From: a virus
Reading direction: 5' to 3' (one strand)
Virus record (IMG/VR): IMGVR_UViG_3300020428_000019
Span: 1-48,864 of that record
Length of the DNA stretch: 48,864 nt
Program-made: the position numbers and the translations under genes
The notes under the pieces: model-generated
The model's input: only the letters and a program-made list of their open reading frames with translations
Told to the model about the DNA's origin: nothing
Databases searched by the model: none
Part shown: positions 6,800 to 48,864 of the stretch, in pieces
Position numbering within the stretch: the stretch's first letter is position 1
Layout: each line of letters opens with the position of its first letter

Positions 6800-6807
6800 T
6801 ATAAATA
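6800..6807 (+). promoter_or_regulatory. T4-type late promoter for gp22
   Basis: A perfect TATAAATA lies 37 bases before the gp22 ATG, giving a predicted leader of about 32 bases that contains a GGAG ribosome site. Confidence 0.85.
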
Positions 6808-6844: not shown

Positions 6845-8074
6845 ATGAGCGTAGAAAGCAAAGTCAGAGAACTCCTCTCTAAAGGCCGAGAAGTTGAAGA
6901 GGCACTTAACGAGGAAGTTCAAGAACTGGATGAGGCTGGAGCTGCAGAAAACTTGAAGCCAAATGCTACAAGTTCTGACAAGACCAACCCTACACAGGGT
7001 AATTCTAATCCTAATCCAGAAATTCAAGATTTAAGTGGAACTGGTGACAAACATGGTGGATTGACTTCTGCTATTGGCCCCGCTTCCGCATCAAAAATTG
7101 GTGACTCCCCTAGACCTGCCAACCAAGGCGCTGGTGATGCTCCTAACTACGAAGATGGAGAAGACCCCAAAAAAGTAGTGGCACAAAAATCCTCACAAGG
7201 GATTCGTGCTCAGGAAGAAGTCGAGGCGGATGAAGAAGAAGAAGTCATCGAAGAAGAGGAAGAAGTAGTAGACGAGGAAGAATTGGTCGCTGAAGAAGAA
7301 GAGGCAGAATCAGAGGAAGAGTCCGAAGAGGAAGCAGAAGAAGAAACTCTCTTTGAGAACGACATTCAAAATCTTTTCGCTGACGAAGAACACCTCTCAG
7401 AAGATTTTAAAGTTAAGGCTGCATCGTTATTTGAGACAGTAGTAACTGCTCGTATTGCTAACGAAATGGAGACAATTCAAAAAGAACTCCAAGAAGAAGT
7501 AGCTGCAGAACAAGAAACATTTAAGGAAGAACTAGTTCAAAAGATTGATTCTTACATGAACTATGTTGCCGAAAATTGGATGAAGGAGAACGAACTTGCT
7601 ATAGAACGTGGTCTCCGCACCGAAATTACCGAAGACTTTATCAAGTCTTTGCGTGGTGTTTTCTCCGAACATTATATTGATGTTCCAGAAGACAAGTATG
7701 ATGTCCTTGGTGAGATGCAAAATGAAATCGAAGAACTCAAGGGTAAACTTAATGACCAACTTGCTGAGTCTGTCTCTCTTAAAGAAGAGAAAGAAAGCAT
7801 TTTGCGAGAGAAGGTTATCACTGAAGTCTCCGAAGACATGACAGTCACCGAAAGGGAAAAACTTACTAGTCTGTTGGAAGAAGTTCCATTTGGAACAACT
7901 GACATGTTCGTTGAAAAGGTTTCCGTAGTAAAGGACAACTACTTCCCCAAACAATTAACGGAAACGGTTGAGTCGGAAAAGTTGACCGATACTGTTGATG
8001 AGGCGTACCTACAAGAATCAGGGTCGTATATCAACAAGTATGCTCAGGCGATTTCCAAACAAGTTAAAAAGTAA
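6845..8074 (+). CDS. gp22: Prohead core scaffold gp22
   Basis: Major internal scaffold of the prohead, 409 residues and longer than T4 gp22 (269). Residues about 125-175 are an unbroken acidic run of Glu/Asp. The remainder is predicted helical coiled coil, including the LFADEEHLSEDFKVKAASLFE segment near 180-200, the most recognisable gp22 motif in marine relatives. The N-terminal 120 residues are Gly/Pro/Asn-rich and low in complexity. It is placed between gp21 and gp23 and would be destroyed by gp21 after shell assembly. Confidence 0.92.
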   Translation: MSVESKVRELLSKGREVEEALNEEVQELDEAGAAENLKPNATSSDKTNPTQGNSNPNPEIQDLSGTGDKHGGLTSAIGPASASKIGDSPRPANQGAGDAPNYEDGEDPKKVVAQKSSQGIRAQEEVEADEEEEVIEEEEEVVDEEELVAEEEEAESEEESEEEAEEETLFENDIQNLFADEEHLSEDFKVKAASLFETVVTARIANEMETIQKELQEEVAAEQETFKEELVQKIDSYMNYVAENWMKENELAIERGLRTEITEDFIKSLRGVFSEHYIDVPEDKYDVLGEMQNEIEELKGKLNDQLAESVSLKEEKESILREKVITEVSEDMTVTEREKLTSLLEEVPFGTTDMFVEKVSVVKDNYFPKQLTETVESEKLTDTVDEAYLQESGSYINKYAQAISKQVKK

Positions 8075-9387: not shown

Positions 9388-9415
9388 AAGAGTTGAGTTA
9401 ATCAACCAATTTTAG

Positions 9416-9441
9416 AGGGAGTCTTAGGACTCCCTTTTTTT
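9416..9441 (+). terminator. Intrinsic terminator after gp23
   Basis: A 7-bp perfect stem (GGGAGTC / GACTCCC) with a TTAG loop is followed by seven T. It separates the strongly expressed capsid gene from the next late unit, whose TATAAATA starts only 7 bases after the T run. Confidence 0.92.
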
Positions 9442-9447
9442 ATGCGT

Positions 9448-9455
9448 TATAAATA
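9448..9455 (+). promoter_or_regulatory. Late promoter giving a leaderless mRNA
   Basis: A perfect TATAAATA is followed by exactly 5 bases and then the ATG at 9461. In T4 the octamer covers about -13 to -6, which puts +1 on the A of the start codon. There is no ribosome site between box and ATG. Confidence 0.83.
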
Positions 9456-9460
9456 GATAT

Positions 9461-10054
9461 ATGGCTTACACACCTACATTATCAGTTGGCGAAGGCACCT
9501 ATACGGCTCAGACTTCTCAGGAGTTGAACTACTTACGTCCTAATGGATTTAAGTTTCAAGTTCACAACATGCCGAATGTGTCGTTCTTCTGCCAAGGCGC
9601 AAACATCCCAGACATATCGATGGGATTCCCTATACAAGCGACACCGCTTGCAGACATTCCATACCCAGGCGAGAAGATAAGTTTTGGTGATTTGATTATA
9701 CGATTCCTCATACAAGAGGACATGACAAACTACAAAGAATTGTATAATTGGTTGATAGGGTTGGGTTCGCCAGAGAGGTCTTCACAGTACACAGACTTTA
9801 TTGACAAACAACAATACAGGACTCCCTTGGGTTCTGGGTCTACGTCTGATAAATCTGCTGGAACGGCTCAAGTGAGTGATGCTAGTTTGTTTGTTTTAGA
9901 CTCAAACGACAATCCCAATGTTGAAATTAAATTTAAAGACATGTTTCCAACCTCACTGTCTGGATTAGACTTTGATTTATCTGGTGGGGATTCCCCATAC
10001 TTTGTTGGTTTGGCATCCTTTAAATACAGGATATATACTATAAAAAATATTTGA
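9461..10054 (+). CDS. Tail-tube-fold virion protein (gp19-like paralogue)
   Basis: 197 residues. The N-terminal half (NGFKFQVHNMPNVSFFCQGANIPDI ... DIPYPGEKISFGDLIIRFLIQED ... YNWLIGLG) has the order of elements seen in gp19-type tube proteins. It is a family found in most marine T4-likes and usually annotated as a structural or tail-tube-like protein. The C-terminus ends with a beta strand (FKYRIYTI). It is a separate late unit after the capsid terminator. The mRNA is predicted to be leaderless. It could be a tail or baseplate-hub tube component; the exact T4 counterpart is unclear. Confidence 0.78.
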   Translation: MAYTPTLSVGEGTYTAQTSQELNYLRPNGFKFQVHNMPNVSFFCQGANIPDISMGFPIQATPLADIPYPGEKISFGDLIIRFLIQEDMTNYKELYNWLIGLGSPERSSQYTDFIDKQQYRTPLGSGSTSDKSAGTAQVSDASLFVLDSNDNPNVEIKFKDMFPTSLSGLDFDLSGGDSPYFVGLASFKYRIYTIKNI

Positions 10055-12478: not shown

Positions 12479-13276
12479 ATGCAACAAGAAGGCAAAATGA
12501 GAGTTGGCGTAGTCGGGTGTGGATTTGTAGGTGGCGCCGTGGAGTATGCATTTACTCATCCAAATGTGGATAAGTGTTTAGTTGACCCAAAGTTGTGGTC
12601 TGACATCGATGACCTTTTAAATTTTGACCCCCACTTCACCTTCATATGTCTTCCCGCTCCTACTGATAACAAGGGTGTGGATGACAGACTCATTTGGGAT
12701 TATGTAGGCCCTTTACTAGAACTTACTGGTAGTACCATATCAATTAAGTCTACACTAACACCAGACCTTGTGGATACATTATGTCAACACAGGAGAGTTG
12801 TTTACAATCCAGAGTTCCTAATTCAATCAAATGCAAAAGAACAGTTCGTCAACGCTAAGTATCATATTTTTGGCGGAGAAGAATATTCGTGTAAGGCTTT
12901 AGAATATCTCTATAGGAATTACTCTATCTGCATTGCAGATGAATATGTCCACATGACACCAGCTGAAGCATCTTTTGTTAAGTATGGAGTCAATTCCTTT
13001 TTGTCAACAAAAGTAACTTTCTTTAATCAATTGTTCGATTCAATAAAAAGTTTTGAGTTTGCAAATCCCAGTGTAGTTATTAATACTATTGGTAAAGACC
13101 CTCGTATTGGCCACGGACATACTCGTGTGCCTGGCCATGACCGCAAACAGGGATACGGTGGTTCTTGTTTTCCAAAGGATACAGATGCATTTACGAAATT
13201 TGACAAGAACCTAACACTGATTAAAAAGAGTATAGAAATTAATAAGGATTATCGCAATGGCGAAGAAAACAACTAA
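12479..13276 (+). CDS. UDP-glucose/nucleotide-sugar 6-dehydrogenase-like
   Basis: 265 residues. N-terminal Rossmann fold with GVVGCGFVGGAV; then FICLPAPTDNKG, SIKSTLTPD, YNPEFLIQ, the central KYGVNSF helix, and the active-site Cys in YGGSCFPKDTDAF near residue 233. This is the order of UDP-glucose dehydrogenases, which oxidise the sugar 6-OH to an acid with NAD+. The usual C-terminal domain (about 130 residues) is absent, so the protein is a short form; such forms are common in marine phages. ATG at 12497 (after AGAAGG) is an alternative start. It may supply a sugar acid for glycan or capsule modification together with the glycosyltransferase-like gene at 15954. Confidence 0.88.
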   Translation: MQQEGKMRVGVVGCGFVGGAVEYAFTHPNVDKCLVDPKLWSDIDDLLNFDPHFTFICLPAPTDNKGVDDRLIWDYVGPLLELTGSTISIKSTLTPDLVDTLCQHRRVVYNPEFLIQSNAKEQFVNAKYHIFGGEEYSCKALEYLYRNYSICIADEYVHMTPAEASFVKYGVNSFLSTKVTFFNQLFDSIKSFEFANPSVVINTIGKDPRIGHGHTRVPGHDRKQGYGGSCFPKDTDAFTKFDKNLTLIKKSIEINKDYRNGEENN

Positions 13277-13844
13277 CAAACACTATGTCAACAATAAGGA
13301 CTTCCTTCATGCTATGACAGAGTATAGGACTTTAAGACTAGAAGCAGAAGAGGCTGGGGAACCCAAACCTCGTGTCTCTAATTATATCGGGGAGTGTTTT
13401 GTTAAGATTGCAAATCACCTCGCATACAAATCTAATTTTGTAAACTACACGTTCAGAGAAGAAATGATTTTGGATGGTATAGAGAATTGTATTACATACA
13501 TCGATAACTTTAATCCAGAGAAATCCAAGAATCCTTTTGCTTACTTTACTCAGATTACCTACTATGCTTTTTTGCGTAGAATCCAGAAAGAAAAGAAACA
13601 ACTTGATACCAAGTACAAGTACATTCAGAGTCTAGATACTCAGGCACTGATGGACGAGGCTTCTGGTGAACAGGGTTCTGGAGAGTTTATCGAATACATG
13701 AAGAAACAGATAGACGAAGCAGAGAAACACAATCAGAAGTACAAGGAAGAGAATAAAAAGATTCCTAAGAGGCGTCCCAAGTATCTAAATGACAAGGAAG
13801 CCCTTGAGTTAGCTAAGGAAAAGGGTGTTCTTGAGAAAAAGTAA
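13257..13844 (+). CDS. gp55: Late-transcription sigma factor gp55
   Basis: 195 residues (T4 gp55 185). It binds host RNA polymerase and recognises TATAAATA. Typical parts: IGECFVKIANHLAYKSNFVNYTF near residue 45, and the sigma region 2-like stretch DGIENCITYIDNFNPEKSKNPFAYFTQITYYAFLRRIQKEKKQ. The latter holds the core-binding and -10-reading helix. At least ten TATAAATA boxes in this window fit its presence. It overlaps the upstream dehydrogenase gene by 20 bases and so belongs to that early/middle transcript. Confidence 0.95.
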   Translation: MAKKTTNKHYVNNKDFLHAMTEYRTLRLEAEEAGEPKPRVSNYIGECFVKIANHLAYKSNFVNYTFREEMILDGIENCITYIDNFNPEKSKNPFAYFTQITYYAFLRRIQKEKKQLDTKYKYIQSLDTQALMDEASGEQGSGEFIEYMKKQIDEAEKHNQKYKEENKKIPKRRPKYLNDKEALELAKEKGVLEKK

Positions 13845-18001: not shown

Positions 18002-19672
18002 ATGATAATATTTGAAAAGTTGCGGTGGAAAAATTTTCTATCCACTGGGAACTCTTTTACTGAAATTGATTTTGTTAGACACCCAACCACACTTATTGTC
18101 GGTGAGAATGGTAGTGGTAAGTCAACGTGTCTGGATGCCCTTTGTTTTGGATTGTTCAATAAACCATTCAGAAACATAAACAAGCCTCAGTTAGTAAATT
18201 CTATCAACAATAAAAAGATGCAAGTTGAGGTAGAGTTTAAGATAGGGTCAAAAAAATACAAAGTCATTCGTGGAATGAAACCACACATCTTTGAAATATA
18301 TTGTGATGGTGCTTTTATTGACCAAGACGCTGCTGCTCGTGACACACAGAAGTATCTAGAAGATAGTATACTCAAACTTAATTACAAGTCTTTCACGCAG
18401 ATTGTAATCTTGGGGTCTGCTTCGTTCACACCTTTCATGCAGTTAGGCCAATCTACCAGAAGAGAAATCATTGAAGACATTTTAGATATTCAGATTTTCA
18501 CCACCATGAATAGTTTGTTGCGTGAAAAGACTGCTGCTTTAAAGTTGGAAATATTACAGATAGAATCGGAATTAGAACTCGCCAAACATAAAACTAATGT
18601 TCAGAAAGAATATATAGATACGTTGGAGAGTGATAAAAGTAAAAAACTTAAAAATTTGGAGGCACAAATTGAAGAACTCGTTGAGGAAATTGAATCAAAC
18701 CAGAAGACGATTGACTCAAGGGAGGCGAAGAAACTGGCTCTTGGCAACCCAAAACAAGAACAACGAGATTTGGAAACCCACAGAAATTCCTTTAAATCTC
18801 AAATCATCCAAGCTGAAAGAGAGTTAGACTTTTATGAAAACAACGAGGACTGTCCAACCTGTAAGCAGGGCATACCCCACGAACACAAAGAAGAAGTCAA
18901 ACAAAGAAAATCAAAAGAAATTCAAGACTTATCTAAAGCAACAAAAGGACTCGACAAACAATATGAAAAGGTAGTCAGTACCCTTGAAAAGTTTGTAGAG
19001 ATATCAGATGAGATACAAGAGTTACAAACTGAGATAATTTCTCAGGAGAGGTACAGGAATACTCTTCAGTCTGATTTGAATTCTGCCAAGGAAAACAGAG
19101 GCAATATAGATGATGAGAACAAGAAACTAAAGTCTATGGCCAGAGAGGTAGTTGATAAGAATACTCTCAGGTCAGAGAAGAATGAAGACCAACACTTCAA
19201 TACGGTGGCTGGTATCTTACTAAAAGATACTGGTATCAAGACTAGAATTATTAGACAATATTTGCCTGCCATTAATAAATTGGTGAATAAATACTTGGCT
19301 GCTATGGATTTCTTTGTTCACTTTGAGTTGGATGAGAAGTTCAATGAGACTATCAAGTCCAGACACAGAGACAGATTTAGTTACGCCTCATTTAGTGAGG
19401 GTGAGAAACAACGTATCGACTTGGCACTGTTGTTCACATGGAGAACTATTGCTAAGATGAAGAACAGTGCAAGTACCAATCTATTACTGTTGGATGAAGT
19501 GTTTGACAGTTCCCTAGATAATAATGGTGTTGACTATGTGATGAATTTATTGGATACTATTGGTGACCAGACAAATGTGTTTGTGATTAGTCACAAGGGT
19601 GACCAATTATTTGATAAGTTCAGAGGTCAAATTAAATTTGAGAAAAAACAAAATTATAGTGTGATAACATGA
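18002..19672 (+). CDS. gp46: Recombination endonuclease subunit gp46 (SbcC/Rad50-like)
   Basis: SMC-like ATPase, 556 residues (T4 560). Walker A GENGSGKS is at residues 34-41. Two long coiled-coil arms flank a zinc hook, CPTC at 284-287. The ABC signature FSEGEKQRIDLALLF and Walker B NLLLLDEVFDSSLD lie near the C-terminus, followed by the VISHKGD H-loop. It partners gp47. Stop and the next start overlap by ATGA. Confidence 0.97.
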   Translation: MIIFEKLRWKNFLSTGNSFTEIDFVRHPTTLIVGENGSGKSTCLDALCFGLFNKPFRNINKPQLVNSINNKKMQVEVEFKIGSKKYKVIRGMKPHIFEIYCDGAFIDQDAAARDTQKYLEDSILKLNYKSFTQIVILGSASFTPFMQLGQSTRREIIEDILDIQIFTTMNSLLREKTAALKLEILQIESELELAKHKTNVQKEYIDTLESDKSKKLKNLEAQIEELVEEIESNQKTIDSREAKKLALGNPKQEQRDLETHRNSFKSQIIQAERELDFYENNEDCPTCKQGIPHEHKEEVKQRKSKEIQDLSKATKGLDKQYEKVVSTLEKFVEISDEIQELQTEIISQERYRNTLQSDLNSAKENRGNIDDENKKLKSMAREVVDKNTLRSEKNEDQHFNTVAGILLKDTGIKTRIIRQYLPAINKLVNKYLAAMDFFVHFELDEKFNETIKSRHRDRFSYASFSEGEKQRIDLALLFTWRTIAKMKNSASTNLLLLDEVFDSSLDNNGVDYVMNLLDTIGDQTNVFVISHKGDQLFDKFRGQIKFEKKQNYSVIT

Positions 19673-20211
19673 ATCCAGATGACTTAAAATTACTACCGAT
19701 AGACCACCCGATGTTGAAAGTTCTACCAGAGGAGTTTGACGATTGGGACAACGCAGAGAATTTTTGCTTTGCATTATTCAAGAGACAATTAGATTTGGGC
19801 GGTATAGGATTGTCTGCTAACCAAGTGGGACTGAACGCTTCTGTGTTTACTATGGGAACAGGCAAGGATGGTAAGGCGTGGAACATTATCAATCCAGATG
19901 TAATCACGGTCAGTGAGGAATGTGATACGATGGAAGAGGGATGTTTGAGTGCGCCTGGCCTTATGCTGAAGGTTAAGAGACCGACTAAGATATCCGTAAG
20001 TTATCAAAATACAGATGGTGACCCAGTATTAGAAGAGTTTGACGGTATCTGGGCAAGAGTCTTCCTACATGAGTATGACCACATGTTAGGACAGAATTTT
20101 TTGCAAAGAGTGTCCAAGTTAAAACTAGATAGGGCCCTCAAAAAATATAAAAAATTGCACAAAAAAGGTTTGTTTAATGATGTCATTGAGCAAAAAGTAA
20201 ACTACCACTAA
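19669..20211 (+). CDS. def: Peptide deformylase
   Basis: 180 residues, normal length. All three signature motifs are present: GIGLSANQ (Q52), EGCLS with the metal ligand Cys92, and HEYDH with H134, E135 and H138. It removes the formyl group from new proteins. Phage deformylases are known from marine myoviruses and have been proposed to favour turnover of host or phage membrane proteins; no photosynthesis gene is seen here. It overlaps gp46 by ATGA and precedes the late promoter of iscU. Confidence 0.95.
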   Translation: MNPDDLKLLPIDHPMLKVLPEEFDDWDNAENFCFALFKRQLDLGGIGLSANQVGLNASVFTMGTGKDGKAWNIINPDVITVSEECDTMEEGCLSAPGLMLKVKRPTKISVSYQNTDGDPVLEEFDGIWARVFLHEYDHMLGQNFLQRVSKLKLDRALKKYKKLHKKGLFNDVIEQKVNYH

Positions 20212-20219
20212 TATAAATA
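20212..20219 (+). promoter_or_regulatory. Late promoter giving a leaderless iscU mRNA
   Basis: A perfect TATAAATA overlaps the end of the deformylase region (stop at 20209-20211) and lies exactly 5 bases before the iscU ATG. The T4 rule puts +1 on the A of ATG. No ribosome site fits in between. Confidence 0.82.
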
Positions 20220-20224
20220 CTAGT

Positions 20225-20611
20225 ATGGCATACTCTGACAAAGTTATAGACCACTACGAGAACCCACGGAATGTGGGTAAATGGGATCCCAAGACAGATG
20301 GTGTGGGAACAGGAATGGTTGGCGCTCCTGCTTGTGGTGATGTTATGAGATTGCAAATAAAAGTTGAAGACAATTACATTGTAGATGCGAAGTTTAAAAC
20401 ATATGGTTGTGGTTCTGCCATTGCATCGTCTTCATTATTAACCGAGTGGGTAAAAGGCAGAACTCTAGAAGATGCGAGCGAAATAAAAAACGTAGAGATT
20501 GCTGAAGAACTTGCTTTACCTCCTGTGAAAATTCACTGTAGTGTACTGGCAGAAGATGCTATCAAAGCAGCAATCAGCGATTACAGGGAAAAATATGCTG
20601 GAGATAACTGA
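20225..20611 (+). CDS. iscU: Iron-sulfur cluster scaffold IscU-like
   Basis: 128 residues, full length. The three cluster-binding cysteines are C37 in APACGD (with D39), C62 in YGCGSAIASSS and C105 in KIHCSVLAEDAI. The N-terminal YSDKVIDHYENPRNVG is the family start. The host co-chaperone HscA normally binds an LPPVK motif, and LPPVK is present at 98-102, just before C105. The protein is thus likely to work with the host IscS/HscA system. Its late promoter implies use late in infection. It overlaps the IscA-like gene by 17 bases. Confidence 0.95.
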   Translation: MAYSDKVIDHYENPRNVGKWDPKTDGVGTGMVGAPACGDVMRLQIKVEDNYIVDAKFKTYGCGSAIASSSLLTEWVKGRTLEDASEIKNVEIAEELALPPVKIHCSVLAEDAIKAAISDYREKYAGDN

Positions 20612-26159: not shown

Positions 26160-26188
26160 TTTATTATGAATTTTGATTGGAGTATATT

Positions 26189-26842
26189 ATGAAAGTATCA
26201 AAGGAAACTCTTGAGCAACTCAAGAACTTTGCAACCATCAACACAAACTTGATGGTCAAAGAAGGCAACCAACTTGCCACAGTTGCAAACTCAATGAACA
26301 TCTTGGCAAAGGCGAATGTGTCAGAAACATTCCCAAGAGAGTTCGCTATCTATGACCTAAATCAGTTTCTTGCATTGCTCACCATGAGTGATGATACTGA
26401 ACTGTCATTCGGTGATGAATCCGTGACAGTGAACATGGGAGCGGGTTCCTTTGAGTATTACTATGCTGAACCCTCAGTCATTAAAGCAGCGCCTGACAGG
26501 GAAATTGAGGTCGAGGCAAAGTATCAGACTACCCTTGATGGAGATTCCATCATCAAAATACAGAGAGCTGCCTCTGCTATCTCTGCGCCATTCTTGAGTA
26601 TTGTTTCTCGTGATGGTTCAGTGTCAGTCAATGTTGGTGACCCCAACACCCCCAAGAGCAATAGCTTCTCAACGATGATTGGAACTTCCGATGTGGAGTT
26701 TGATGCTCGACTCTCTATTGAGTCACTAAAAGTTATACCCGACACTTACGAAGTCACCGTAGGAACTAAACCTGTTCTTATGTTCAAGAACGACAAGAGA
26801 ACCTATTGGTTGGCTTTAGACCCATCTTCACAGACCAGTTAG
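26189..26842 (+). CDS. gp45: Sliding clamp gp45
   Basis: 217 residues from ATG 26189 (T4 gp45 228), with TTGGAG upstream; a TTG four codons earlier is a less likely start. MKVSKETLEQLKNFATINTNLMVKEGNQLATVA and the C-terminal KPVLMFKNDKRTYWLALDP match the clamp family. The trimer tethers polymerase to DNA and also activates late transcription with gp55 and gp33. It is the first gene of a replication operon. Confidence 0.95.
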   Translation: MKVSKETLEQLKNFATINTNLMVKEGNQLATVANSMNILAKANVSETFPREFAIYDLNQFLALLTMSDDTELSFGDESVTVNMGAGSFEYYYAEPSVIKAAPDREIEVEAKYQTTLDGDSIIKIQRAASAISAPFLSIVSRDGSVSVNVGDPNTPKSNSFSTMIGTSDVEFDARLSIESLKVIPDTYEVTVGTKPVLMFKNDKRTYWLALDPSSQTS

Positions 26843-26853
26843 GAGAAAAATAA

Positions 26854-27483
26854 ATGAAGGTTGAAGTAGGACAACGAGTCCCGATGGATGTCGTATGGAA
26901 TGTACGAGTCCGTTCAGAAGAGATGGTTGCTGCTGGTGAGGAAAATCCTTACAAGTGGCAGTTGTTTTCTTCTGGAGATTATTTTGCAGGCAAACGAGTA
27001 ATTGTTTTTGCTTTGCCTGGAGCATTTACACCAACATGTTCGGCAAAACAATTGCCTGGCTATGAACAAAACTACAAAGCTTTCCGTAAAGCAGGAGTCG
27101 ATGAAATTTACTGTTTGTCAGTCAACGATAGTTTTACTATGAACGCTTGGTTTAGATATCAACGAATTGAAAATATCAAACCGATTGGTGACGGTTCTGG
27201 CCAATTCACTGAACAGATGGGTGCTTTGGTTGATAAACATAACTTAACTTTTGGTAAGAGGTCATGGCGATACTCCATGCTTGTTAATGATGGTATTGTT
27301 GAAACTGCATTTGTTGAAGCTGGTTTCCAAGATAATTGCCCAACAGATCCATTTGAAATTTCTGATGCTGCTACTATGTATGATTACGTTACCAATAAAA
27401 GTTCAGTGGTGAATGAAACAAAAGGAAGGCAACTAGAGTTAGAGTTGCATGACAGCACAAAGAAGTCTGAAAAGTTTGGATAG
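26854..27483 (+). CDS. Peroxiredoxin (Prx5-like) with C-terminal extension
   Basis: 209 residues, AGGAG ribosome site. The active site PGAFTPTCSAKQLPGY holds the peroxidatic Cys62 and is typical of the Prx5 group. Cys87 (EIYCLSVND) is the other conserved-looking cysteine; whether it resolves is unknown. The last 40 residues after the normal fold end are Lys/Glu-rich and extra. The enzyme reduces peroxides, so it may protect the phage's replication machinery from oxidative stress. It is placed between clamp and clamp loader, an unusual spot for a redox gene. Confidence 0.9.
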   Translation: MKVEVGQRVPMDVVWNVRVRSEEMVAAGEENPYKWQLFSSGDYFAGKRVIVFALPGAFTPTCSAKQLPGYEQNYKAFRKAGVDEIYCLSVNDSFTMNAWFRYQRIENIKPIGDGSGQFTEQMGALVDKHNLTFGKRSWRYSMLVNDGIVETAFVEAGFQDNCPTDPFEISDAATMYDYVTNKSSVVNETKGRQLELELHDSTKKSEKFG

Positions 27484-28236
27484 ATGAATCAAAAAATTGT
27501 TATGGTGTCTGGTGGGTTTGACCCACTACACGGTGGACATATCGCACTACTAGAAGCGGCAAAGAAACTTGGTGATACTTTAGTGGTCGGTTTGAACAGT
27601 GATGAATGGTTATTCAGAAAAAAGGGTAAACCGTTCATGGACTTTTCACAAAGATTAGATATCATGGCAAACTTAAAGATGATTGATCACGTTGTCCCAT
27701 TTGATGATGATGATGGGACGGCGAATCAATTTATTAAAGATTGTATGAGGGTTTATGGCCCTGACTGTCATTACATTTTTGCTAATGGCGGTGACCGAAA
27801 CGGTAGTAACATACCAGAGGATGTTAGTGGTGTATGTTGGTACAGTGGAGTAGGTGGCGAGAACAAAAGAAACTCCAGTTCTAATCTCAATAGAACAAGA
27901 AGGCATTGGGGATTCTTTGATGAGGTGTTAAAGTACACTGATGCGAAGGTAAAAGTTTTGGAACTTGAACCTTACAAAAAGATATCTTATCAGAGACATT
28001 TTTATCGTGGCGAGTTCTGGTTTATTTTACAGGGCGAATGTCTGATAAAACACAGTGTCGGCCCGAGTGGTAATTACAAACATTTCACCTTGACAAAACA
28101 CGATAGTTTTAGTATAATGCCATATCATTGGCATCAAGTTGAGAACATTGGTAATGAACCTTTGAGAATTTTAGAAATACAGTATGGTAGTTATCTTGAA
28201 GAAGATGACATTGAACGTGAGGAGATAATGCATTGA
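27484..28236 (+). CDS. Nucleotidyltransferase-cupin fusion
   Basis: 250 residues directly after the peroxiredoxin stop. Residues 1-145: cytidylyltransferase fold with SGGFDPLHGGHIALL (HxGH) and NSDEWLFRKKGKPF, closest to HldE/RfaE-type enzymes. Residues about 155-245: a cupin, as in mannose-6-phosphate isomerase/GDP-mannose enzymes (HFYRGEFWFILQGECLIK ... MPYHWHQVENIGNEPLRILEIQYG), with His and Glu ligands. The pair would activate and isomerise a sugar phosphate. It belongs with the sugar genes at 12479, 15559 and 15954 by theme. An internal perfect promoter is listed separately. Confidence 0.87.
   Translation: MNQKIVMVSGGFDPLHGGHIALLEAAKKLGDTLVVGLNSDEWLFRKKGKPFMDFSQRLDIMANLKMIDHVVPFDDDDGTANQFIKDCMRVYGPDCHYIFANGGDRNGSNIPEDVSGVCWYSGVGGENKRNSSSNLNRTRRHWGFFDEVLKYTDAKVKVLELEPYKKISYQRHFYRGEFWFILQGECLIKHSVGPSGNYKHFTLTKHDSFSIMPYHWHQVENIGNEPLRILEIQYGSYLEEDDIEREEIMH
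28090..28118 (+). promoter_or_regulatory. Perfect sigma70-type promoter before clamp loader genes
   Basis: TTGACA at 28090-28095, exactly 17 bases, TATAAT at 28113-28118, inside the cupin part of the preceding gene. It lies 115 bases before the small gene at 28233 and about 290 before gp44, so it could raise clamp-loader expression independently of gp45. Confidence 0.62.
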
Positions 28237-28409
28237 AGAAAAAGAATGTGACCCAAAGACGCCTCGTTGCTTTGGAAAATTTGAGGAAGTCAAAGTTCTT
28301 CCCTAAGAAGATTCGGTCTGGTAAAAAATTACAAGACCGTTCTCAAGAGACTTGGGAGGCAAACAAGCTTGCCCAGATAGAAATCCTTGAGAAAAGGACT
28401 CGCACATGA
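28233..28409 (+). CDS. Small basic protein, TTG start
   Basis: 58 residues, starting with TTG at 28233 coupled to the stop of the gene before (TTGA) and preceded by GAGGAG. It ends by ATGA overlap with gp44. The sequence (MKKKNVTQRRLVALENLRKS, then FFPKKIRSGKK) is strongly basic, followed by a charged helix. The coupling on both sides supports translation. A nucleic-acid-binding role would fit its charge, but no family is recognised. Confidence 0.68.
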   Translation: MKKKNVTQRRLVALENLRKSKFFPKKIRSGKKLQDRSQETWEANKLAQIEILEKRTRT

Positions 28410-29335
28410 AGGAGTTCTTGTGGGTAGAAAAATACAGGCCTGACACAATCTTGGATTGTGTTTTGCCTGATAGGTTGAAGAGTGTTTTTGATGACATAGT
28501 GGCACAAGGTGAGATACCAAACATGTTACTGTGTGGAACTGCCGGCACAGGTAAGACCACTGTTGCTAAGGCATTGTGTAGAGAACTTGGTGTTGATTAT
28601 ATTCTCATCAATGGTTCTGATGAATCTGGTATCGATGTATTGAGAACAAAGATAAGAGACTTTGCTTCCACTGTTAGTTTTGGTGGGCAGACCAAAGTTG
28701 TTATCTTGGACGAGGCAGACTACCTTAATCCCAACTCAACACAACCCGCTCTCAGGGCATTCATCGAAGAGTTTTCTGCCAACTGTCGGTTCATCTTTAC
28801 ATGTAATTTCAAGAACCGTATCATCGAACCACTGCATAGTCGAACTACTGTGATTGATTTCAAACTCAACAAGGGTGAGAAACAAGTCATGGCTACTAAG
28901 TTCATGCAACGAATGAAAACAATCCTTGGTAGAGAACAGATTGAGTTCTCTGATAAAGTGATTGCTGAGTTGTTGATGAAGTATTTTCCAGACTATCGCC
29001 GTGTTCTAAACGAACTCCAACGGTATTCAAGGTCTGGTGTTATCGATGAGGGTATCCTAAGTAACATCGCTGAGGTCAACATGAAGGGACTCTACGATGC
29101 GCTCAAGGAGAAAGACTGGCGAAAGATGCGTATGTGGGTTGTCAACAATATAGACAATGACCCCACTGGATTGTATCGTAAAGTTTATGATGGTCTCGTG
29201 GATAAAGTAAAACAAGTGCCACATCTCGTGTTGTTGATTGCAGACTATCAATACAAGTCTGCTTTTGTTGCTGACCAAGAAATCAACATGACTGCTTGTC
29301 TCACAGATATCATGGCCAGTTGCGAATTTAAATGA
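28406..29335 (+). CDS. gp44: Clamp loader large subunit gp44
   Basis: AAA+ ATPase of 309 residues (T4 319). It has WVEKYRP, Walker A GTAGTGKT near residue 44, Walker B VVILDEADYLN near 99 and sensor FTCNFKNRIIEPLHSR. With gp62 it opens the gp45 clamp onto primed DNA. Gp62 is not adjacent as in T4; three genes for an oxygenase and small proteins and one glycosyltransferase-like gene lie in between. Confidence 0.95.
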   Translation: MKEFLWVEKYRPDTILDCVLPDRLKSVFDDIVAQGEIPNMLLCGTAGTGKTTVAKALCRELGVDYILINGSDESGIDVLRTKIRDFASTVSFGGQTKVVILDEADYLNPNSTQPALRAFIEEFSANCRFIFTCNFKNRIIEPLHSRTTVIDFKLNKGEKQVMATKFMQRMKTILGREQIEFSDKVIAELLMKYFPDYRRVLNELQRYSRSGVIDEGILSNIAEVNMKGLYDALKEKDWRKMRMWVVNNIDNDPTGLYRKVYDGLVDKVKQVPHLVLLIADYQYKSAFVADQEINMTACLTDIMASCEFK

Positions 29336-30126
29336 TTAGTTTTGACCTAGACCTCAAAAATGCCACTGACGAAGATGCTCGATTAATAACTGAAGCCGTT
29401 TTGAGTGACGGAGTTGTGGTGATAAGGAATCAAGTGTTGACTCCCGATGAAGAGGTTGATTTTTGTGAACGTATCGGCAACTGCCAAGAGTACACTGATG
29501 TCGATAGAACCAAGCATATTGCTTGTCACTCAAAAATTTTAAGGGTCACTGGTGAAAAAGATGAACATGGCGAGGAAGGTTTGTTTGGTCATACCAGTGC
29601 TTTAGATTGGCATGCCAATCAGGCAAGTAACTATGAACGTGCGCCATTGATTTGGTTGTATGGTGTCAAGGGAACTGAAGGTAGTTGTACAAGTTGGATT
29701 GACATGCAGGCTGCGTACAATGATTTACCAAAATCTGAACAAGAAGAACTATCCGATATACAAATCACACTAGGGTATAAGTCTGGTTCTTATTCTGATA
29801 GTAAATTCTTTGTGGAACATCATGCCACTGACAGACCTTTCAATTTGGTTCATACTAATGATGCTGGCAAAACTGGATTCTATTTTCCATTCCTTCAGAT
29901 ATTTGGCATAGTGGGAATGGGAGAGTGGGGATTTGAGACTACGATGGAATACTTGAAACAACATGTCTTACAGGAAAAGTATAGATATGATCATTACTGG
30001 AAAGATGGCGATATAGTCATAAGCGAACAGTGGTTGACCATTCATAAGAGACATGAATTCGATAACATGGATACAAGATTATTGCATAGGATAGCTTTCG
30101 ACTATGAGAGATATAGCAGACAGTGA
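29332..30126 (+). CDS. TauD-like dioxygenase with altered metal site
   Basis: 264 residues, ATGA-coupled to gp44. TauD/TfdA pattern: GVVVIRNQVLTPDE, then LDWHANQ at the place of the iron-binding W-H-x-D, a second His at 238 (LTIHKRHEF) and the 2OG-binding R253 (LLHRIAFDYERY). The acidic ligand is replaced by Asn96 (H94-A-N96). My memory of cyanophage homologues is that they show a similar HxN, so it may be a subclass rather than a dead copy. The substrate is unknown. Confidence 0.83.
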   Translation: MISFDLDLKNATDEDARLITEAVLSDGVVVIRNQVLTPDEEVDFCERIGNCQEYTDVDRTKHIACHSKILRVTGEKDEHGEEGLFGHTSALDWHANQASNYERAPLIWLYGVKGTEGSCTSWIDMQAAYNDLPKSEQEELSDIQITLGYKSGSYSDSKFFVEHHATDRPFNLVHTNDAGKTGFYFPFLQIFGIVGMGEWGFETTMEYLKQHVLQEKYRYDHYWKDGDIVISEQWLTIHKRHEFDNMDTRLLHRIAFDYERYSRQ

Positions 30127-36878: not shown

Positions 36879-37035
36879 CCGATGTGGGGGTCAAATTGAC
36901 CTTGACAAAGACGGTGCAATATGTTTTAATAATGGTGCAGATGAGTGTTATTTGTGCGAACCGTGTATAGAAGAAGTGAAGCGAGAATTTTACGATGAGA
37001 TTAGAGAAACAGATACTATCGAATCTTATAAATGA
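36859..37035 (+). CDS. Small zinc-ribbon protein
   Basis: 58 residues from ATG 36859, overlapping the end of uvsX by 20 bases and the start of gp41 by 41 bases. Two Cys pairs, CDRC (residues 6-9) and CEPC, plus Cys22 and Cys30, fit a zinc knuckle or ribbon, and the C-terminal helix is acidic. The clear Cys pattern makes it a likely real gene in spite of the double overlap. No family assigned. Confidence 0.62.
   Translation: MPTKICDRCGGQIDLDKDGAICFNNGADECYLCEPCIEEVKREFYDEIRETDTIESYK
36902..36930 (+). promoter_or_regulatory. Possible sigma70-type promoter before gp41
   Basis: TTGACA at 36902-36907, 17 bases, TTTAAT at 36925-36930, 65 bases ahead of the gp41 ATG and inside the small zinc-ribbon gene. 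It is one mismatch from the -10 consensus. Confidence 0.45.
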
Positions 37036-38377
37036 CGAAACTTATGTAAGAGGAACTATCGCATTTCTAAAAGAAGATTATTTTTTAGAACAATTCGATA
37101 GGGAAGTCTTCAAAGTCATTCGTGATTATATAAACAAATACAATACAGTGCCTTCCAAAAATGCGTTGCTAATTTCCCTACAGGAAAACAAACGCATCGA
37201 TGAAAACACATACGCAAAGTGTGAAGAGTTGGTCAATAGTCTGGTGTACATGGAGTCTGACTTTGAGTGGATGATAGACCAGACAGAGAAGTTTTGCAAA
37301 GACAAGGCACTATACAATGCAGTAATGCAATCAATACAAATCATCGATGGCCAAGACAAGGCACACAATGTCGATGCTTTGCCTCACATCTTATCCGATG
37401 CCCTCAGTGTTGGTTTTGACAATCACATTGGACACGATTATGTTGGTGACGCTGAGTCCCGATATGATTTCTATCATAGAGTAGAGGAAAGAATTCCCTT
37501 TGACCTTGAGTATTTCAACAAGATTACTGAAGGTGGACTAGTAAACAAGACGTTGAATGTTGCACTCGCTGGAACAGGTGTAGGTAAATCCTTGTTCATG
37601 TGTCACATGGCTGCTGCTTGTATTGAGCAGGGCAAGAATGTTTTGTATGTCACTCTAGAGATGTCAGAGGAGAGAATCGCAGAACGTATTGATGCTAACA
37701 TGTTAGATATTTCCATTCAAGATTTGAAAGGGTTATCTAAAAAGATGTACACTGACCGCATTGATAAAATCAAAACAAAAATTGATGGTAGATTAATTAT
37801 CAAAGAATATCCAACTGCCTCAGCACATACAGGTCATATCAGAACTTTGGTAGAAGAGTTAAAAATCAAACAAACCTTTGCACCAGATATTATCTTTGTA
37901 GATTATCTAAATATTTGTATAAGTCAAAGGTTGCGTGGTAATCATGGTGCAAATAGTTACACCATTGTCAAGGCAATCGCTGAGGAGATGCGTGGTCTCG
38001 CGGTGGAGTATGATTTGCCTATCGTGACTGCAACACAGACCACTCGTGGTGGATATAACAATAGTGATGTTGACTTGACAGACACCTCAGAGAGTTTTGG
38101 TCTTCCTGCCACTGCTGACTTAATGTTCGCCCTTATCAGTACAGAGGAACTAGAACAACAGGGACACATCATGGTGAAACAATTGAAGAATCGATACAGT
38201 GACCCAACAAGAAACAAGAGGTTCATGGTTGGCGTTGACAGGGCGAAGATGAGATTGTATGATTTGGAAGCTGATGCCCAAAATAACATCCATGACTCTG
38301 GACAAGACGATGATACCCCAGTATTTGATAGAGGTAATTTTGGCGGCAGAGAAAATTTGTCTTCTATAAAAGTATAA
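36995..38377 (+). CDS. gp41: Replicative helicase gp41 (DnaB-like)
   Basis: 460 residues (T4 475). N-terminal helical domain, then Walker A AGTGVGKSLF near residue 194, Walker B IIFVDYLNIC, TQTTRGGYNNSD (motif H3-like) and the GLPATADLM segment. It unwinds DNA ahead of the fork and recruits the gp61 primase, which is not in this window. The gene ends at a late promoter. Confidence 0.95.
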   Translation: MRLEKQILSNLINDETYVRGTIAFLKEDYFLEQFDREVFKVIRDYINKYNTVPSKNALLISLQENKRIDENTYAKCEELVNSLVYMESDFEWMIDQTEKFCKDKALYNAVMQSIQIIDGQDKAHNVDALPHILSDALSVGFDNHIGHDYVGDAESRYDFYHRVEERIPFDLEYFNKITEGGLVNKTLNVALAGTGVGKSLFMCHMAAACIEQGKNVLYVTLEMSEERIAERIDANMLDISIQDLKGLSKKMYTDRIDKIKTKIDGRLIIKEYPTASAHTGHIRTLVEELKIKQTFAPDIIFVDYLNICISQRLRGNHGANSYTIVKAIAEEMRGLAVEYDLPIVTATQTTRGGYNNSDVDLTDTSESFGLPATADLMFALISTEELEQQGHIMVKQLKNRYSDPTRNKRFMVGVDRAKMRLYDLEADAQNNIHDSGQDDDTPVFDRGNFGGRENLSSIKV

Positions 38378-38380
38378 ATA
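38373..38380 (+). promoter_or_regulatory. Late promoter giving a leaderless mRNA
   Basis: A perfect TATAAATA overlaps the gp41 stop and lies exactly 5 bases before ATG 38386. It starts the lysis-related unit, so the first gene is predicted to be leaderless. Confidence 0.82.
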
Positions 38381-38385
38381 GAGTT

Positions 38386-38766
38386 ATGAGTAAGATATTA
38401 CTAGGATTATTATTTGGTTGCGGTATAATAGGATACTTCTATTATAACGATACCCAGCGGGAACTCACCGAATTGCGTGAGTTGAACATGGCTATGGAAC
38501 TACAAGTTGCAACCCAAAATGATACTATAGATAAAATGCAGACACAGTACGAAACTCAAGCACAAGCGTTAGGTGAGTTGACTGCTGCCAATGCTGATAT
38601 ACAGGCAGAAAGAGATAGATATCTGGATATATTTCGTAGACATGATTTATCTAGACTTGCTGCCGCTAAGCCTGGCCTAATTGAACCAAGAGTGAACAAT
38701 GCGACAAAACAAGTTTTTGACAGTTTGGAAATCGATAGCGATTACAACAACTCTACTAGTCCTTAA
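38386..38766 (+). CDS. Inner-membrane spanin-like protein (Rz-like)
   Basis: 126 residues. One N-terminal membrane helix (ILLGLLFGCGIIGYFYY), then a coiled coil (TELRELNMAMELQVATQNDTIDKM and on) and a C-terminal ERDRYLDIFRRHDLSRLAAAKPGLIEPRVN block common in marine phage i-spanin candidates. The next gene, a lipoprotein, begins within it in another frame. This is the classic Rz/Rz1 arrangement, in which the two bridge inner and outer membrane and fuse them at lysis. Confidence 0.82.
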   Translation: MSKILLGLLFGCGIIGYFYYNDTQRELTELRELNMAMELQVATQNDTIDKMQTQYETQAQALGELTAANADIQAERDRYLDIFRRHDLSRLAAAKPGLIEPRVNNATKQVFDSLEIDSDYNNSTSP

Positions 38767-43905: not shown

Positions 43906-43927
43906 TTATATTAAAAGTGTGATAAAT

Positions 43928-43952
43928 AAGGGGGTATTGACCCCCTTTTTTT
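43928..43952 (+). terminator. Intrinsic terminator after lipoprotein
   Basis: Stem AAGGGGG / CCCCCTT with a TATTGA loop, in a run of seven T (43946-43952). It ends the unit upstream and directly precedes the GGAG of the next gene. Confidence 0.92.
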
Positions 43953-43964
43953 ATGGAGATGATT

Positions 43965-44396
43965 ATGGAAAAAAAATATGATATGGAAAAGAATTTGATT
44001 GCTGAGAAAGATGACGAATTAAAAACCCCCGCCCAGATTTATGACCACGATTTAAACGCCGAGACAGTCAAGTCACTAGAAGAAGCACTAGCGATAGATT
44101 ACATTGAGAAGTGGAAAGTTCATGCACAGATGAAGTTGTATGAGAGAAACTTTCTCAAAGCTGAAGAGTTGCGAAACAATATAACACAGGCTTGGGATAC
44201 AGTCAACGCCAATCTACAAATCACTTCTCGGAATCTAGAAGAGAAGAAGATTGCTTTGGAGTTTGAGATACAAGAGAAAGAAATACTCAAGGCAACCATC
44301 AAGGAACTACGAGCAGAATTGAAAACGCTTAAAAAAGCTGAAGAGGTTTCAGAGCAAAAGAGCGTGAAAAAAAGTCCCAGGCCAAAAACGCGCTGA
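43965..44396 (+). CDS. Coiled-coil hypothetical protein
   Basis: 143 residues from ATG 43965, with TGGAGATG upstream; an ATG at 43953 would sit on the terminator edge and is less likely. After YDHDLNAETVKSLEEALAIDYIEKWK the sequence is one long charged helix with heptad-like spacing, ending in a basic tail (KSVKKSPRPKTR). Unknown role. How it is transcribed right after a terminator is unclear. Confidence 0.7.
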   Translation: MEKKYDMEKNLIAEKDDELKTPAQIYDHDLNAETVKSLEEALAIDYIEKWKVHAQMKLYERNFLKAEELRNNITQAWDTVNANLQITSRNLEEKKIALEFEIQEKEILKATIKELRAELKTLKKAEEVSEQKSVKKSPRPKTR

Positions 44397-46799: not shown

Positions 46800-47387
46800 A
46801 TGGAGTTTATTATAGACCTTGCCATGCAATTTTGGCAATTTACGATAGCAATAGCAATTATACTCATTGGCGCATTGATAAATGTTATGGACTTGAGGGA
46901 AAATACCAAGTTAACATTTTCCGCAAAAGACATGCCCCAACTGAGACCCTTGCCCTTTAAAACCAAGGGGAAGGGATTCTGGGGAGGAGTTCTCGCTTGG
47001 TTGATGGGTTCTAGACAATGGGAACTACTCAAAGATTGGAATTACATCATTGACGATGTTGAATATGTAGTTCCAAAGGGGTTTCAATTTGATGGTGCCA
47101 GTATACCCAAATTTTTAAGAACTTTTTTCTCTCCAGTTGGCGTTATGCTGATTGGTGGATTAGTGCATGATTACGGATACAAGTATCAGACACTATTGTT
47201 AAAAGGTAAAAAGAAAGACATTGGAATCAAGACTCAAAAGTGGATGGATGAAATATTCAGAGACATCAATATAAATGTTAATGGCTTCTACACTATGAAT
47301 TACCTTGCATATTACACATTGAGATTGGGTGGTTTTATTGCATGGAATGGTCATAGGAAAAGGGACGTAAAAATATCGGAGGAATGA
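46800..47387 (+). CDS. DUF1353 protein with N-terminal membrane anchor
   Basis: 195 residues after AAAGGAAATCC. One membrane helix at about 10-30 (FWQFTIAIAIILIGALINVM). The DUF1353 signature follows: VVPKGFQFDGASIPKFLRTFFSP and GGLVHDYGYKYQTLL. DUF1353 is often found near lysis genes and may act on or bind cell-wall material; the His/Asp in LVHDY suggests an enzyme. It lies right after the lysozyme. Confidence 0.87.
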   Translation: MEFIIDLAMQFWQFTIAIAIILIGALINVMDLRENTKLTFSAKDMPQLRPLPFKTKGKGFWGGVLAWLMGSRQWELLKDWNYIIDDVEYVVPKGFQFDGASIPKFLRTFFSPVGVMLIGGLVHDYGYKYQTLLLKGKKKDIGIKTQKWMDEIFRDININVNGFYTMNYLAYYTLRLGGFIAWNGHRKRDVKISEE

Positions 47388-47644
47388 TGGGGGTTCCAGA
47401 CATGACAGTTTTTCCTATAACGGATGAAATGAGAATTATTGCTAAGTATGAAGATAAACTAAAACAACTTAACCATCTGTACGATTCTGGTATGTTGTCA
47501 TATGATGAATATGATACTCTGGTGAATGATTTTAGAAGTGAAGAAGCTATAATTGAGGATATAAAAAGAACTGATCCATTTCATACATCTTTTGCTAAAA
47601 GTATTGTTCAGGCCTTAACTCCCCTAATCAATCCTTATAAATAG
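47384..47644 (+). CDS. Small hypothetical protein
   Basis: 86 residues from ATG 47384, which overlaps the stop of the DUF1353 gene; GGAGG is the ribosome site. The sequence includes MRIIAKYEDKLKQLNHLYDSGMLSYDEYDTL, a helix pair resembling a short SHOCT-like helix (L-x-x-LYDSG-x-LSYDEY). It ends at a late promoter for the kinase gene. Confidence 0.7.
   Translation: MMGVPDMTVFPITDEMRIIAKYEDKLKQLNHLYDSGMLSYDEYDTLVNDFRSEEAIIEDIKRTDPFHTSFAKSIVQALTPLINPYK
47636..47643 (+). promoter_or_regulatory. Late promoter giving a leaderless mRNA
   Basis: A perfect TATAAATA overlaps the end of the gene before and stands exactly 5 bases before the kinase ATG at 47649. It is the fourth case of this spacing. 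Confidence 0.82.
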
Positions 47645-47648
47645 TGGT

Positions 47649-48864
47649 ATGGAAAAGACACTCACAGACTTCATTCCCATCGAAGAGGGAATAAATGACC
47701 CTGCTATATTCAAGGCAGTTTTCCTTGCCGGCGGGCCTGGTTCTGGCAAATCTTTTATTGTTGGAAAAACTGCCCTCACTACTCTCGGATACAAGGTTGT
47801 CAATTCTGACACGGCATTTGAGAACGCTCTCAAAAAAGAATTCAAAGATAAAGCAAATCCCATGGCTCCCGAAAATATTTTTTCACTCAAGGGACAAAAA
47901 CTGAGGGATCGTGCTACATTCATCACTGCTCAACGTAAGTCTGGTTTTTTGACAGGTAGACTTGGTTTGGTTATTGATGGAACTGGTAAAAACTACGACA
48001 AAATCAAAAAGCAGAAAATCGAAATAGAAAAATTAGGATATGAAACTGCGATGATTTTTGTGAATACTAATCTTGATACTGCTGTTGCCAGAGATAATGA
48101 TCGAGCTAGAACTCTTGGGTCAGTGCAAGTTGGCCAAATGTGGCATTCAGTCCAAAAAAATATTGGACGGTTTCAAAACTTGTTTCGTGATATGTTTATC
48201 GTTGACAACTCTGAAGGTTCTGACTATGAAGCAGCGATTCTCGCAACATACAGGAAAGTTATGGTGTGGACAAGGAAACCGCCTTCTACCCGACAAGCAA
48301 AAGCTTGGATCAAGGATGAAAAACAAAGGAGAAACATCACCAAAGAATCCGTGGATGAGGCATGCTGGGTAGGTTACAAACAAAAGGGCATGAAGAAGAA
48401 GGGAAACCGAATGGTTCCTAATTGTGTCAAAGAAGATGATGTGACAGAAGCAGAATTACCACCACATCTCAAGAGACATTTTGACAAGGACGGAAATGTT
48501 AAGAAAGGTTCTTGGAAATCTGGTGATTGGAAAGCAGATAAGAAACAACCAAAGATAAAGACTACAGTTAAAACTATCAAAGTGCCTGGCTACACAGTAG
48601 ATGAAGACATCAAGAAGATGGATATGGGGGATGTTATCAAAGATTTCTATAAGAGTGATGCACCCCAGTTCAAAGGTAAATCTAAGAAGAAACGCAGAGA
48701 AATGGCAATTGCCGCCAAATTGGATGCCGATGGTGTCAGTGAAGATTTAAGAAAGTGGTTCGGTAAAGGCCCGAAAGGTGATTGGGTTCGCGTAGGCACA
48801 GACGGTAAAATCAAGGGAGATTGTGCAAGAGAGCCTGGCGAGGGTAAACCGAAGTGTATGCCTA
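47649..48864 (+). CDS. P-loop kinase (zeta/AAA_33-like) with basic C-terminal domains, 3' end missing
   Basis: At least 405 residues from ATG 47649; the frame is open to the window end. Residues about 1-210: P-loop kinase with Walker A AGGPGSGKSF (near 27-36), NSDTAFE, GLVIDGTGKN (Walker B-like) and an R-x-x-R lid (ARDNDRARTLG), as in polynucleotide or zeta-type kinases. Residues about 235-260: CWVGYKQKGMKKKGNRMVPNC, a short domain recurring in marine phage proteins. At the end: WVRVGTDGKIKGDCAREPGEGKPKCMP, another recurring Cys-containing basic domain. It may phosphorylate a nucleic acid or small substrate. Confidence 0.85.
   Translation, partial: MEKTLTDFIPIEEGINDPAIFKAVFLAGGPGSGKSFIVGKTALTTLGYKVVNSDTAFENALKKEFKDKANPMAPENIFSLKGQKLRDRATFITAQRKSGFLTGRLGLVIDGTGKNYDKIKKQKIEIEKLGYETAMIFVNTNLDTAVARDNDRARTLGSVQVGQMWHSVQKNIGRFQNLFRDMFIVDNSEGSDYEAAILATYRKVMVWTRKPPSTRQAKAWIKDEKQRRNITKESVDEACWVGYKQKGMKKKGNRMVPNCVKEDDVTEAELPPHLKRHFDKDGNVKKGSWKSGDWKADKKQPKIKTTVKTIKVPGYTVDEDIKKMDMGDVIKDFYKSDAPQFKGKSKKKRREMAIAAKLDADGVSEDLRKWFGKGPKGDWVRVGTDGKIKGDCAREPGEGKPKCMP

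What the first reader, a model, noticed from the sequence alone, without database searches (positions are those of the whole stretch)
9448..9463. Four late promoters placed for leaderless mRNAs
Perfect TATAAATA boxes at 9448, 20212, 38373 and 47636 are each followed by exactly 5 bases and then ATG (9461, 20225, 38386, 47649). Seen directly in the sequence. In T4 the box covers about -13 to -6, so +1 would be the A of ATG in every case. The other six late boxes give leaders of about 26-51 bases, so there are two clear classes. The four genes (tube-like protein, iscU, i-spanin, kinase) share no other feature. Leaderless start is rare in T4-like phages as far as I know, and may set a different translation rate or timing late in infection.
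Basis: partly seen in the sequence, partly recalled or inferred. Interest (0 to 1): 0.8.

Follow-up and report, generated by a model that had tools for sequence, protein, structure and literature searches.

The report
Leaderless late promoters in marine phages
In a group of ocean phages related to phage T4, a set of late genes has its promoter placed so that the messenger RNA should begin exactly at the protein's start codon, leaving out the usual ribosome-binding leader; this spacing is kept across many relatives and looks like a second, so far undescribed way of switching on late genes.

Summary
Of 11 perfect TATAAATA late boxes in the window, four are followed by exactly five bases and ATG (P about 2e-7). 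The pattern recurs outside the window. In ten related genomes or contigs (the window, HTVC008M, Mosig, Melnitz, six IMG/VR contigs) the box-to-ATG distance is sharply bimodal: 30 of 245 boxes at exactly 5 (1.2 expected), a few at 6 or 8, almost none at other distances below 15, then SD-bearing leaders. T4, RB49, Syn9, S-PM2 and P-SSM2 have none. In homologues found by protein similarity alone, spacing 5 is kept while the five bases change (spanin 13 variants, kinase 6, gp25 16 upstream sequences); gp3, gp25 and some spanin homologues with longer spacing usually carry an SD instead. Across IMG/VR, 83% of N5 ATGs open real ORFs, against 37% (N6) and 19% (N4). Many N5 boxes directly follow a terminator, so translational coupling cannot be the general explanation. 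The window encodes gp55 and gp45. Best reading: T4-type late promoters whose +1 is the A of AUG, giving leaderless mRNAs. 5' ends are unmapped. Possible role, inferred: late-only translation of genes such as spanin behind early genes.

The parts
9448..9455 (+). T4-type late promoter box TATAAATA, N5 GATAT, ATG at 9461
   Evidence: N5 kept in L005-L009 with four different N5 sequences
9414..9437 (+). intrinsic terminator just before the 9448 box (10-bp stem, T-run)
   Evidence: terminators precede 29 of 128 N5 boxes surveyed
9461..10054 (+). gp3-like tail completion protein (phrog_45 tail tube), predicted leaderless
   Evidence: leadered homologues with an SD start at the same MAYTPT
20212..20219 (+). 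late box TATAAATA, N5 CTAGT, ATG at 20225; box abuts the stop of the peptide deformylase gene (19669-20211)
20225..20611 (+). IscU/NifU_N, predicted leaderless
   Evidence: PF01592, 6.6e-53
38373..38380 (+). late box TATAAATA, N5 GAGTT, ATG at 38386; the box's TAA is the stop codon of the gp41 helicase gene (36995-38377)
   Evidence: 13 different N5 sequences at spacing 5 in relatives
38386..38766 (+). Rz-like i-spanin, predicted leaderless
   Evidence: phrog_739; 44 of 44 relatives with spacing 5 or 6 lie directly after gp41
47636..47643 (+). late box TATAAATA, N5 GTGGT, ATG at 47649; upstream ORF 47384-47644 ends on the TAG that overlaps the box
   Evidence: six different N5 sequences at spacing 5 in relatives
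47649..48864 (+). AAA_33/zeta-like kinase, cut by the window end, predicted leaderless
13257..13844 (+). gp55-like late sigma factor, expected to read these boxes
   Evidence: phrog_234, 1.9e-61
26177..26842 (+). gp45-like sliding clamp, late transcription activator in T4
   Evidence: phrog_223, 1e-56
6800..6807 (+). example of the second class: late box with an SD-bearing leader, ATG at 6845 (scaffold protein)

Best explanation
The four sites are T4-type (gp55-dependent) late promoters whose transcription start is the A of the start codon, or within a base or so of it, so the late mRNAs of these genes are leaderless and must be started by direct recognition of a 5'-terminal AUG rather than by a Shine-Dalgarno. 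They belong to a class found in a large set of marine T4-like phages, in which each late gene uses one of two layouts: box-N5-AUG without SD, or box plus a leader of about 15 bases or more with SD. Shown: box, exact spacing, its conservation, lack of SD, swap between layouts in homologous genes. Inferred: +1 position, leaderless translation, and the purpose (compact promoters placed at the upstream stop codon or terminator, and a gene translatable only from its own late transcript).
For: Spacing spike: 30 of 245 clade boxes at d=5, 1 in total at d=0-4, 0 at d=7; shuffled octamers 34/6976. Homologues picked by protein similarity: spacing 5 with 13 (spanin), 6 (kinase) and 4 (gp3) different N5 sequences, and 16 distinct gp25 upstream sequences with nothing between d=9 and d=18. 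IMG/VR scans with the same 14 fixed letters: ATG opens an ORF at N5 in 101/121, N6 44/118, N4 23/121. SD strength: N5 class mean -1.7 (gp25 N5 0.0) against -5.65 in leadered clade genes. +1 geometry: T4 box = -13..-6 (PMC1524935); in the clade's leadered promoters box+6 is A in 57/90, and in the N5 class -1 is a pyrimidine in 28/30. N5 genes have weaker 5' structure than inside the gene (-2.1 against -4.3), but leadered genes show the same trend. 29 of 128 N5 boxes directly follow a terminator. gp55 and gp45 are encoded. No GTG or TTG ORF at d=5.
Against: No 5' end has been mapped in any of these phages. The A-rich sequence after leadered boxes weakens the box+6=A argument. Some relatives have spacing 6 or 8 (one spanin clade, some kinases, gp2), which would mean a 1-3 base leader or a shifted start. 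Several other window genes without a box also lack a strong SD, so lack of SD alone is not diagnostic. The IscU site has little conservation of its own. The Caulobacter T4-like Cr30 has no N5 site.
Confidence: 0.85

Rival explanations
1. The genes are co-transcribed with the upstream gene and translated by termination-reinitiation; the box is there only because compact genomes pack promoters at gene ends.
For: In 36 of 128 N5 genes the upstream stop is the box's own TAA (8 bases before ATG, 23 cases) or TAG (4 bases before, 13 cases); true of window sites 38373 and 47636, and 20212 abuts a stop.
Against: 29 of 128 N5 boxes directly follow an intrinsic terminator and 17 have no same-strand ORF end within 150 bases, including window site 9448. 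Upstream stop position varies from 4 to over 100 bases while box-ATG spacing stays at 5. Coupling gives no reason for a fixed box-ATG distance.
Confidence: 0.07
2. TATAAATA-N5-AUG acts in RNA as an AU-rich ribosome-binding element rather than as a promoter placed at +1.
For: Fixed spacing to AUG and lack of SD would also fit an RNA element.
Against: The same octamer serves as a box at 15-60 bases with an SD in the same genomes and the same gene families; it matches the known T4 late promoter; many lie just after terminators; boxes with a changed base at most inner positions show little excess at d=5, while changes at the first base, tolerated by late promoters, still do (10 of 197).
Confidence: 0.04
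3. The true start codons lie elsewhere and the N5 ATG is incidental.
For: The spanin start shifts by one codon among relatives (MSK, MISK, MLSK).
Against: Leadered gp3 homologues with an SD start at the same codon (MAYTPT). When the spanin start shifts by a codon, the box shifts with it so that spacing 5 is kept. N5 ATGs open ORFs in 83% of sampled cases.
Confidence: 0.02
4. Chance coincidence of an AT-rich box and ATG.
For: AT-rich DNA makes both words common.
Against: P about 1e-5 in the window after correction for choice of spacing and 4e-32 in the pooled clade (clade sites are not independent); N4 and N6 controls.
Confidence: 0.01

Closest known systems
T4 late promoter (gp55/gp33/gp45-dependent TATAAATA)
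   Same: Same octamer, presence of gp55 and gp45 genes, use before structural and lysis genes (PMC1524935, PMC2988020).
   Different: In T4, RB49, Syn9, S-PM2 and P-SSM2 the boxes lie 13 or more bases before the ATG; none at spacing 5 opens an ORF.
Leaderless mRNAs of bacteria and of phages such as lambda cI (own knowledge)
   Same: Predicted 5'-terminal AUG, no SD, only ATG starts found at spacing 5.
   Different: Here leaderlessness is tied to one late sigma-type promoter, kept over many gene families, and alternates with SD-led layouts of the same genes.
T4 gene e (lysozyme) late-promoter control
   Same: A lysis gene that should be translated only from its late transcript; in T4, longer early transcripts fold and hide the ribosome site (PMC3014915).
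   Different: Here the proposed lock is the absence of an SD rather than a hairpin; this is inferred, not shown.
Pelagimyophage and methylophage (HTVC008M, Mosig, Melnitz) genomes
   Same: Closest isolates to the window phage by tail sheath (47% identity); they carry the N5 class.
   Different: No description of leaderless late genes was found; one study reports that late-promoter detection failed in pelagimyophages (PMC7029224).

Membership tests
T4-type late promoter | TATAAATA octamer | tested here: met
   perfect at all four sites
T4-type late promoter | phage encodes gp55-like late sigma factor | tested here: met
   13257-13844, phrog_234, 1.9e-61
T4-type late promoter | phage encodes gp45-like sliding clamp | tested here: met
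   26177-26842, phrog_223, 1e-56
T4-type late promoter | gp33 co-activator | not tested
   not searched for; the window is a partial genome
T4-type late promoter | transcription starts about 6 bases after the box | tested here: inconclusive
   A at box+6 in 57/90 leadered clade promoters, pyrimidine before it; no mapped ends
leaderless mRNA | 5' end of the transcript at the start codon | not testable with these tools
   needs 5'-end mapping
leaderless mRNA | no Shine-Dalgarno before the start codon | tested here: met
   anti-SD energies: 0.5 to 3.0 at 9461, 20225 and 47649; class mean -1.7 against -5.65 for leadered genes
leaderless mRNA | AUG, not GUG or UUG, as start | tested here: met
   0 GTG and 0 TTG ORFs at d=5, 30 ATG; few alternatives expected, so weak
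leaderless mRNA | promoter-to-AUG spacing under selection | tested here: met

The most novel reading that the evidence does not exclude
Marine T4-like phages run a two-mode late programme in which a defined set of genes is translated only when its AUG is the 5' end of a late transcript: read-through from early operons makes no protein because there is no SD, so the promoter alone acts as a timing lock for lysis (spanin behind the early helicase gene gp41) and other late genes.
Probability: 0.3. Interest if true: 0.78.

Novelty: new variant of a known kind. Interest (0 to 1): 0.64.

Why it matters
T4 late transcription is a textbook system and its late mRNAs are thought of as SD-led. A whole class of structural, packaging, lysis and metabolic late genes in abundant marine T4-like phages appears to drop the leader. 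That predicts a distinct translation mode late in infection, helps explain why late promoters were missed in pelagimyophages (PMC7029224), improves start-codon calling in thousands of viral contigs, and suggests a simple way to keep a lysis gene silent in early read-through transcripts.

Tried and rejected
Leaderless hosts as the cause: Caulobacter phage Cr30 and Ochrobactrum and Sinorhizobium T4-likes have no N5 site, so host use of leaderless mRNAs alone does not predict the class. Reduced 5' structure as a special mark of N5 genes: present, but leadered genes show a similar trend. SD absence as sufficient proof: rejected, since other window genes also lack one. Literature search for leaderless late genes in T4-like phages or pelagiphages found none in the held library; most subscription papers are not held. 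The N5 matches in T4 and RB49 do not open an ORF of 45 codons or more.

Full report
What is in the sequence. All four sites are exactly as stated: TATAAATA, five bases, ATG. The window has 11 perfect boxes, all on the + strand, against 2.5 expected. Six more precede genes at 31-56 bases with visible SD-like leaders in most cases, and one (11731) is inside uvsW. The reversed pattern occurs 0 times. With the background rate measured on 40 shuffled octamers in ten related genomes and contigs (34 ORF-opening ATGs at d=5 in 6976 sites), four of 11 has P=1.8e-7, or 1.1e-5 after allowing for any spacing.

What the phage is. It is a fragment of a T4-like marine myovirus (tail sheath, scaffold, major head protein, gp3-like, uvsY, uvsW, gp55, gp45, clamp loader, regA, DNA polymerase, gp41, spanins). 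The closest isolates by tail sheath are Pelagibacter phage HTVC008M, Methylophilales phage Melnitz and Pelagibacter phage Mosig, at about 47% identity. It encodes the late sigma factor gp55 and the sliding clamp gp45, so boxes of this kind should be read.

The class is real outside the window. I fetched HTVC008M, Mosig, Melnitz, six related IMG/VR contigs, and T4, RB49, Syn9, S-PM2 and P-SSM2. In the window's clade the distance from TATAAATA to the first ORF-opening ATG has a spike at 5, small numbers at 6 and 8, almost nothing at other distances below 15, and a broad hump at 15-60. In the five T4, RB49 and cyanophage genomes there is nothing below 13. These contigs are not all independent: G001 and G007, and G003 and G004, are close relatives. 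The counts were deduplicated only by identical local sequence, so the pooled P value is only a guide.

Spacing under selection. Homologues fetched by protein similarity, which knows nothing of promoters, give the cleanest test. Spanin: 13 distinct N5 sequences at spacing 5 and two upstream sequences at 6. Kinase: six at 5, two at 8. gp3: four at 5, five with leaders at 22-32, the rest without a perfect box; both of the latter groups usually have an SD. gp25, which is not in the window: 16 distinct upstream sequences at spacing 5, three at 6, one at 4, one at 9, none from 10 to 17, and about 20 at 18-27 that carry SD-like GA-rich stretches. So one gene can use either layout. When the spanin start codon moved by one codon, the box moved with it.

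Breadth. The ATG opens an ORF of at least 60 aa with a nearby upstream stop in 19% (N4), 83% (N5) and 37% (N6). The N5 genes fall into 54 families. The largest are DNA end protector gp2, tail tube/gp3 and gp25; terminase, portal and head-tail adaptor are among the rest. Most identified families are late functions.

Why leaderless. T4 late boxes occupy -13 to -6 (PMC1524935), about one turn upstream of +1 (PMC2988020). Spacing 5 therefore puts +1 on the A of ATG. In leadered promoters of this clade the base six after the box is A in 57 of 90; in the N5 class the base before ATG is a pyrimidine in 28 of 30, as expected at -1. N5 genes have no SD between box and ATG, while leadered ones do.

Why not coupling. 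In 36 of 128 N5 genes the box itself supplies the stop codon of the upstream gene, so coupling could operate there, as at 38373 and 47636. But 29 boxes directly follow a terminator and 17 genes have no same-strand ORF end within 150 bases. Window site 9448 sits 10 bases after a terminator.

Likely purpose (inference). The layout is compact and lets the promoter sit on the upstream stop codon or just after a terminator. It could also act as a lock: an internal AUG without SD in a read-through early transcript should be poorly translated, while the same AUG at the 5' end of a late transcript is read. The spanin fits: all 44 relatives with spacing 5 or 6 lie directly after gp41, and the 19 spanins elsewhere have no box nearby. 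T4 reaches the same end for lysozyme with an early-transcript hairpin (PMC3014915). This is untested.

Limits. No 5' ends are available. Gene calls were mechanical ORFs. The IMG/VR sample required G and T at box+1 and box+2 and T at -1. The IscU site rests mainly on the window and one other contig. The held library lacks most subscription papers, so prior description cannot be excluded.

Verdict. A real, conserved and apparently undescribed layout, best read as leaderless late transcription; a new variant combining two known things, with a sharp experimental test.

Noticed in passing
window 20225-20611: The phage IscU is closest (about 80% identity) to IscU of marine Gammaproteobacteria such as Porticoccus, Halieaceae, SAR92 and HTCC2080, hinting at the gene donor and perhaps the host.
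   Followed up: partly
window 19669-20611: Peptide deformylase and IscU genes lie side by side with a late box between them; some relatives (G002, G005) have an IscA-like A-type carrier gene with an N5 late box instead.
   Followed up: partly
window 43920-43966: GATAAATA followed at once by a GGGGG/CCCCC hairpin with a T-run and then ATGGAG: box, terminator and a possible start codon within 40 bases; the called start at 43953 may be wrong.
   Followed up: no
L436 record (G018, IMG/VR 3300032311_001249, 89.9 kb): Eight TATAAATA-N5-ATG sites in one contig, the highest seen.
   Followed up: no
L166 and L171, just upstream of the spanin gene: Spanin relatives with an N5 ATG out of frame with the gene, followed by GGAG and the true ATG 13 bases later; may be intermediates between the two layouts.
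   Followed up: no
window 26854-27483 and 27484-30126: Host-type genes among replication genes: peroxiredoxin, a heptose/ADP-type nucleotidyltransferase and a taurine-dioxygenase-like protein.
   Followed up: no
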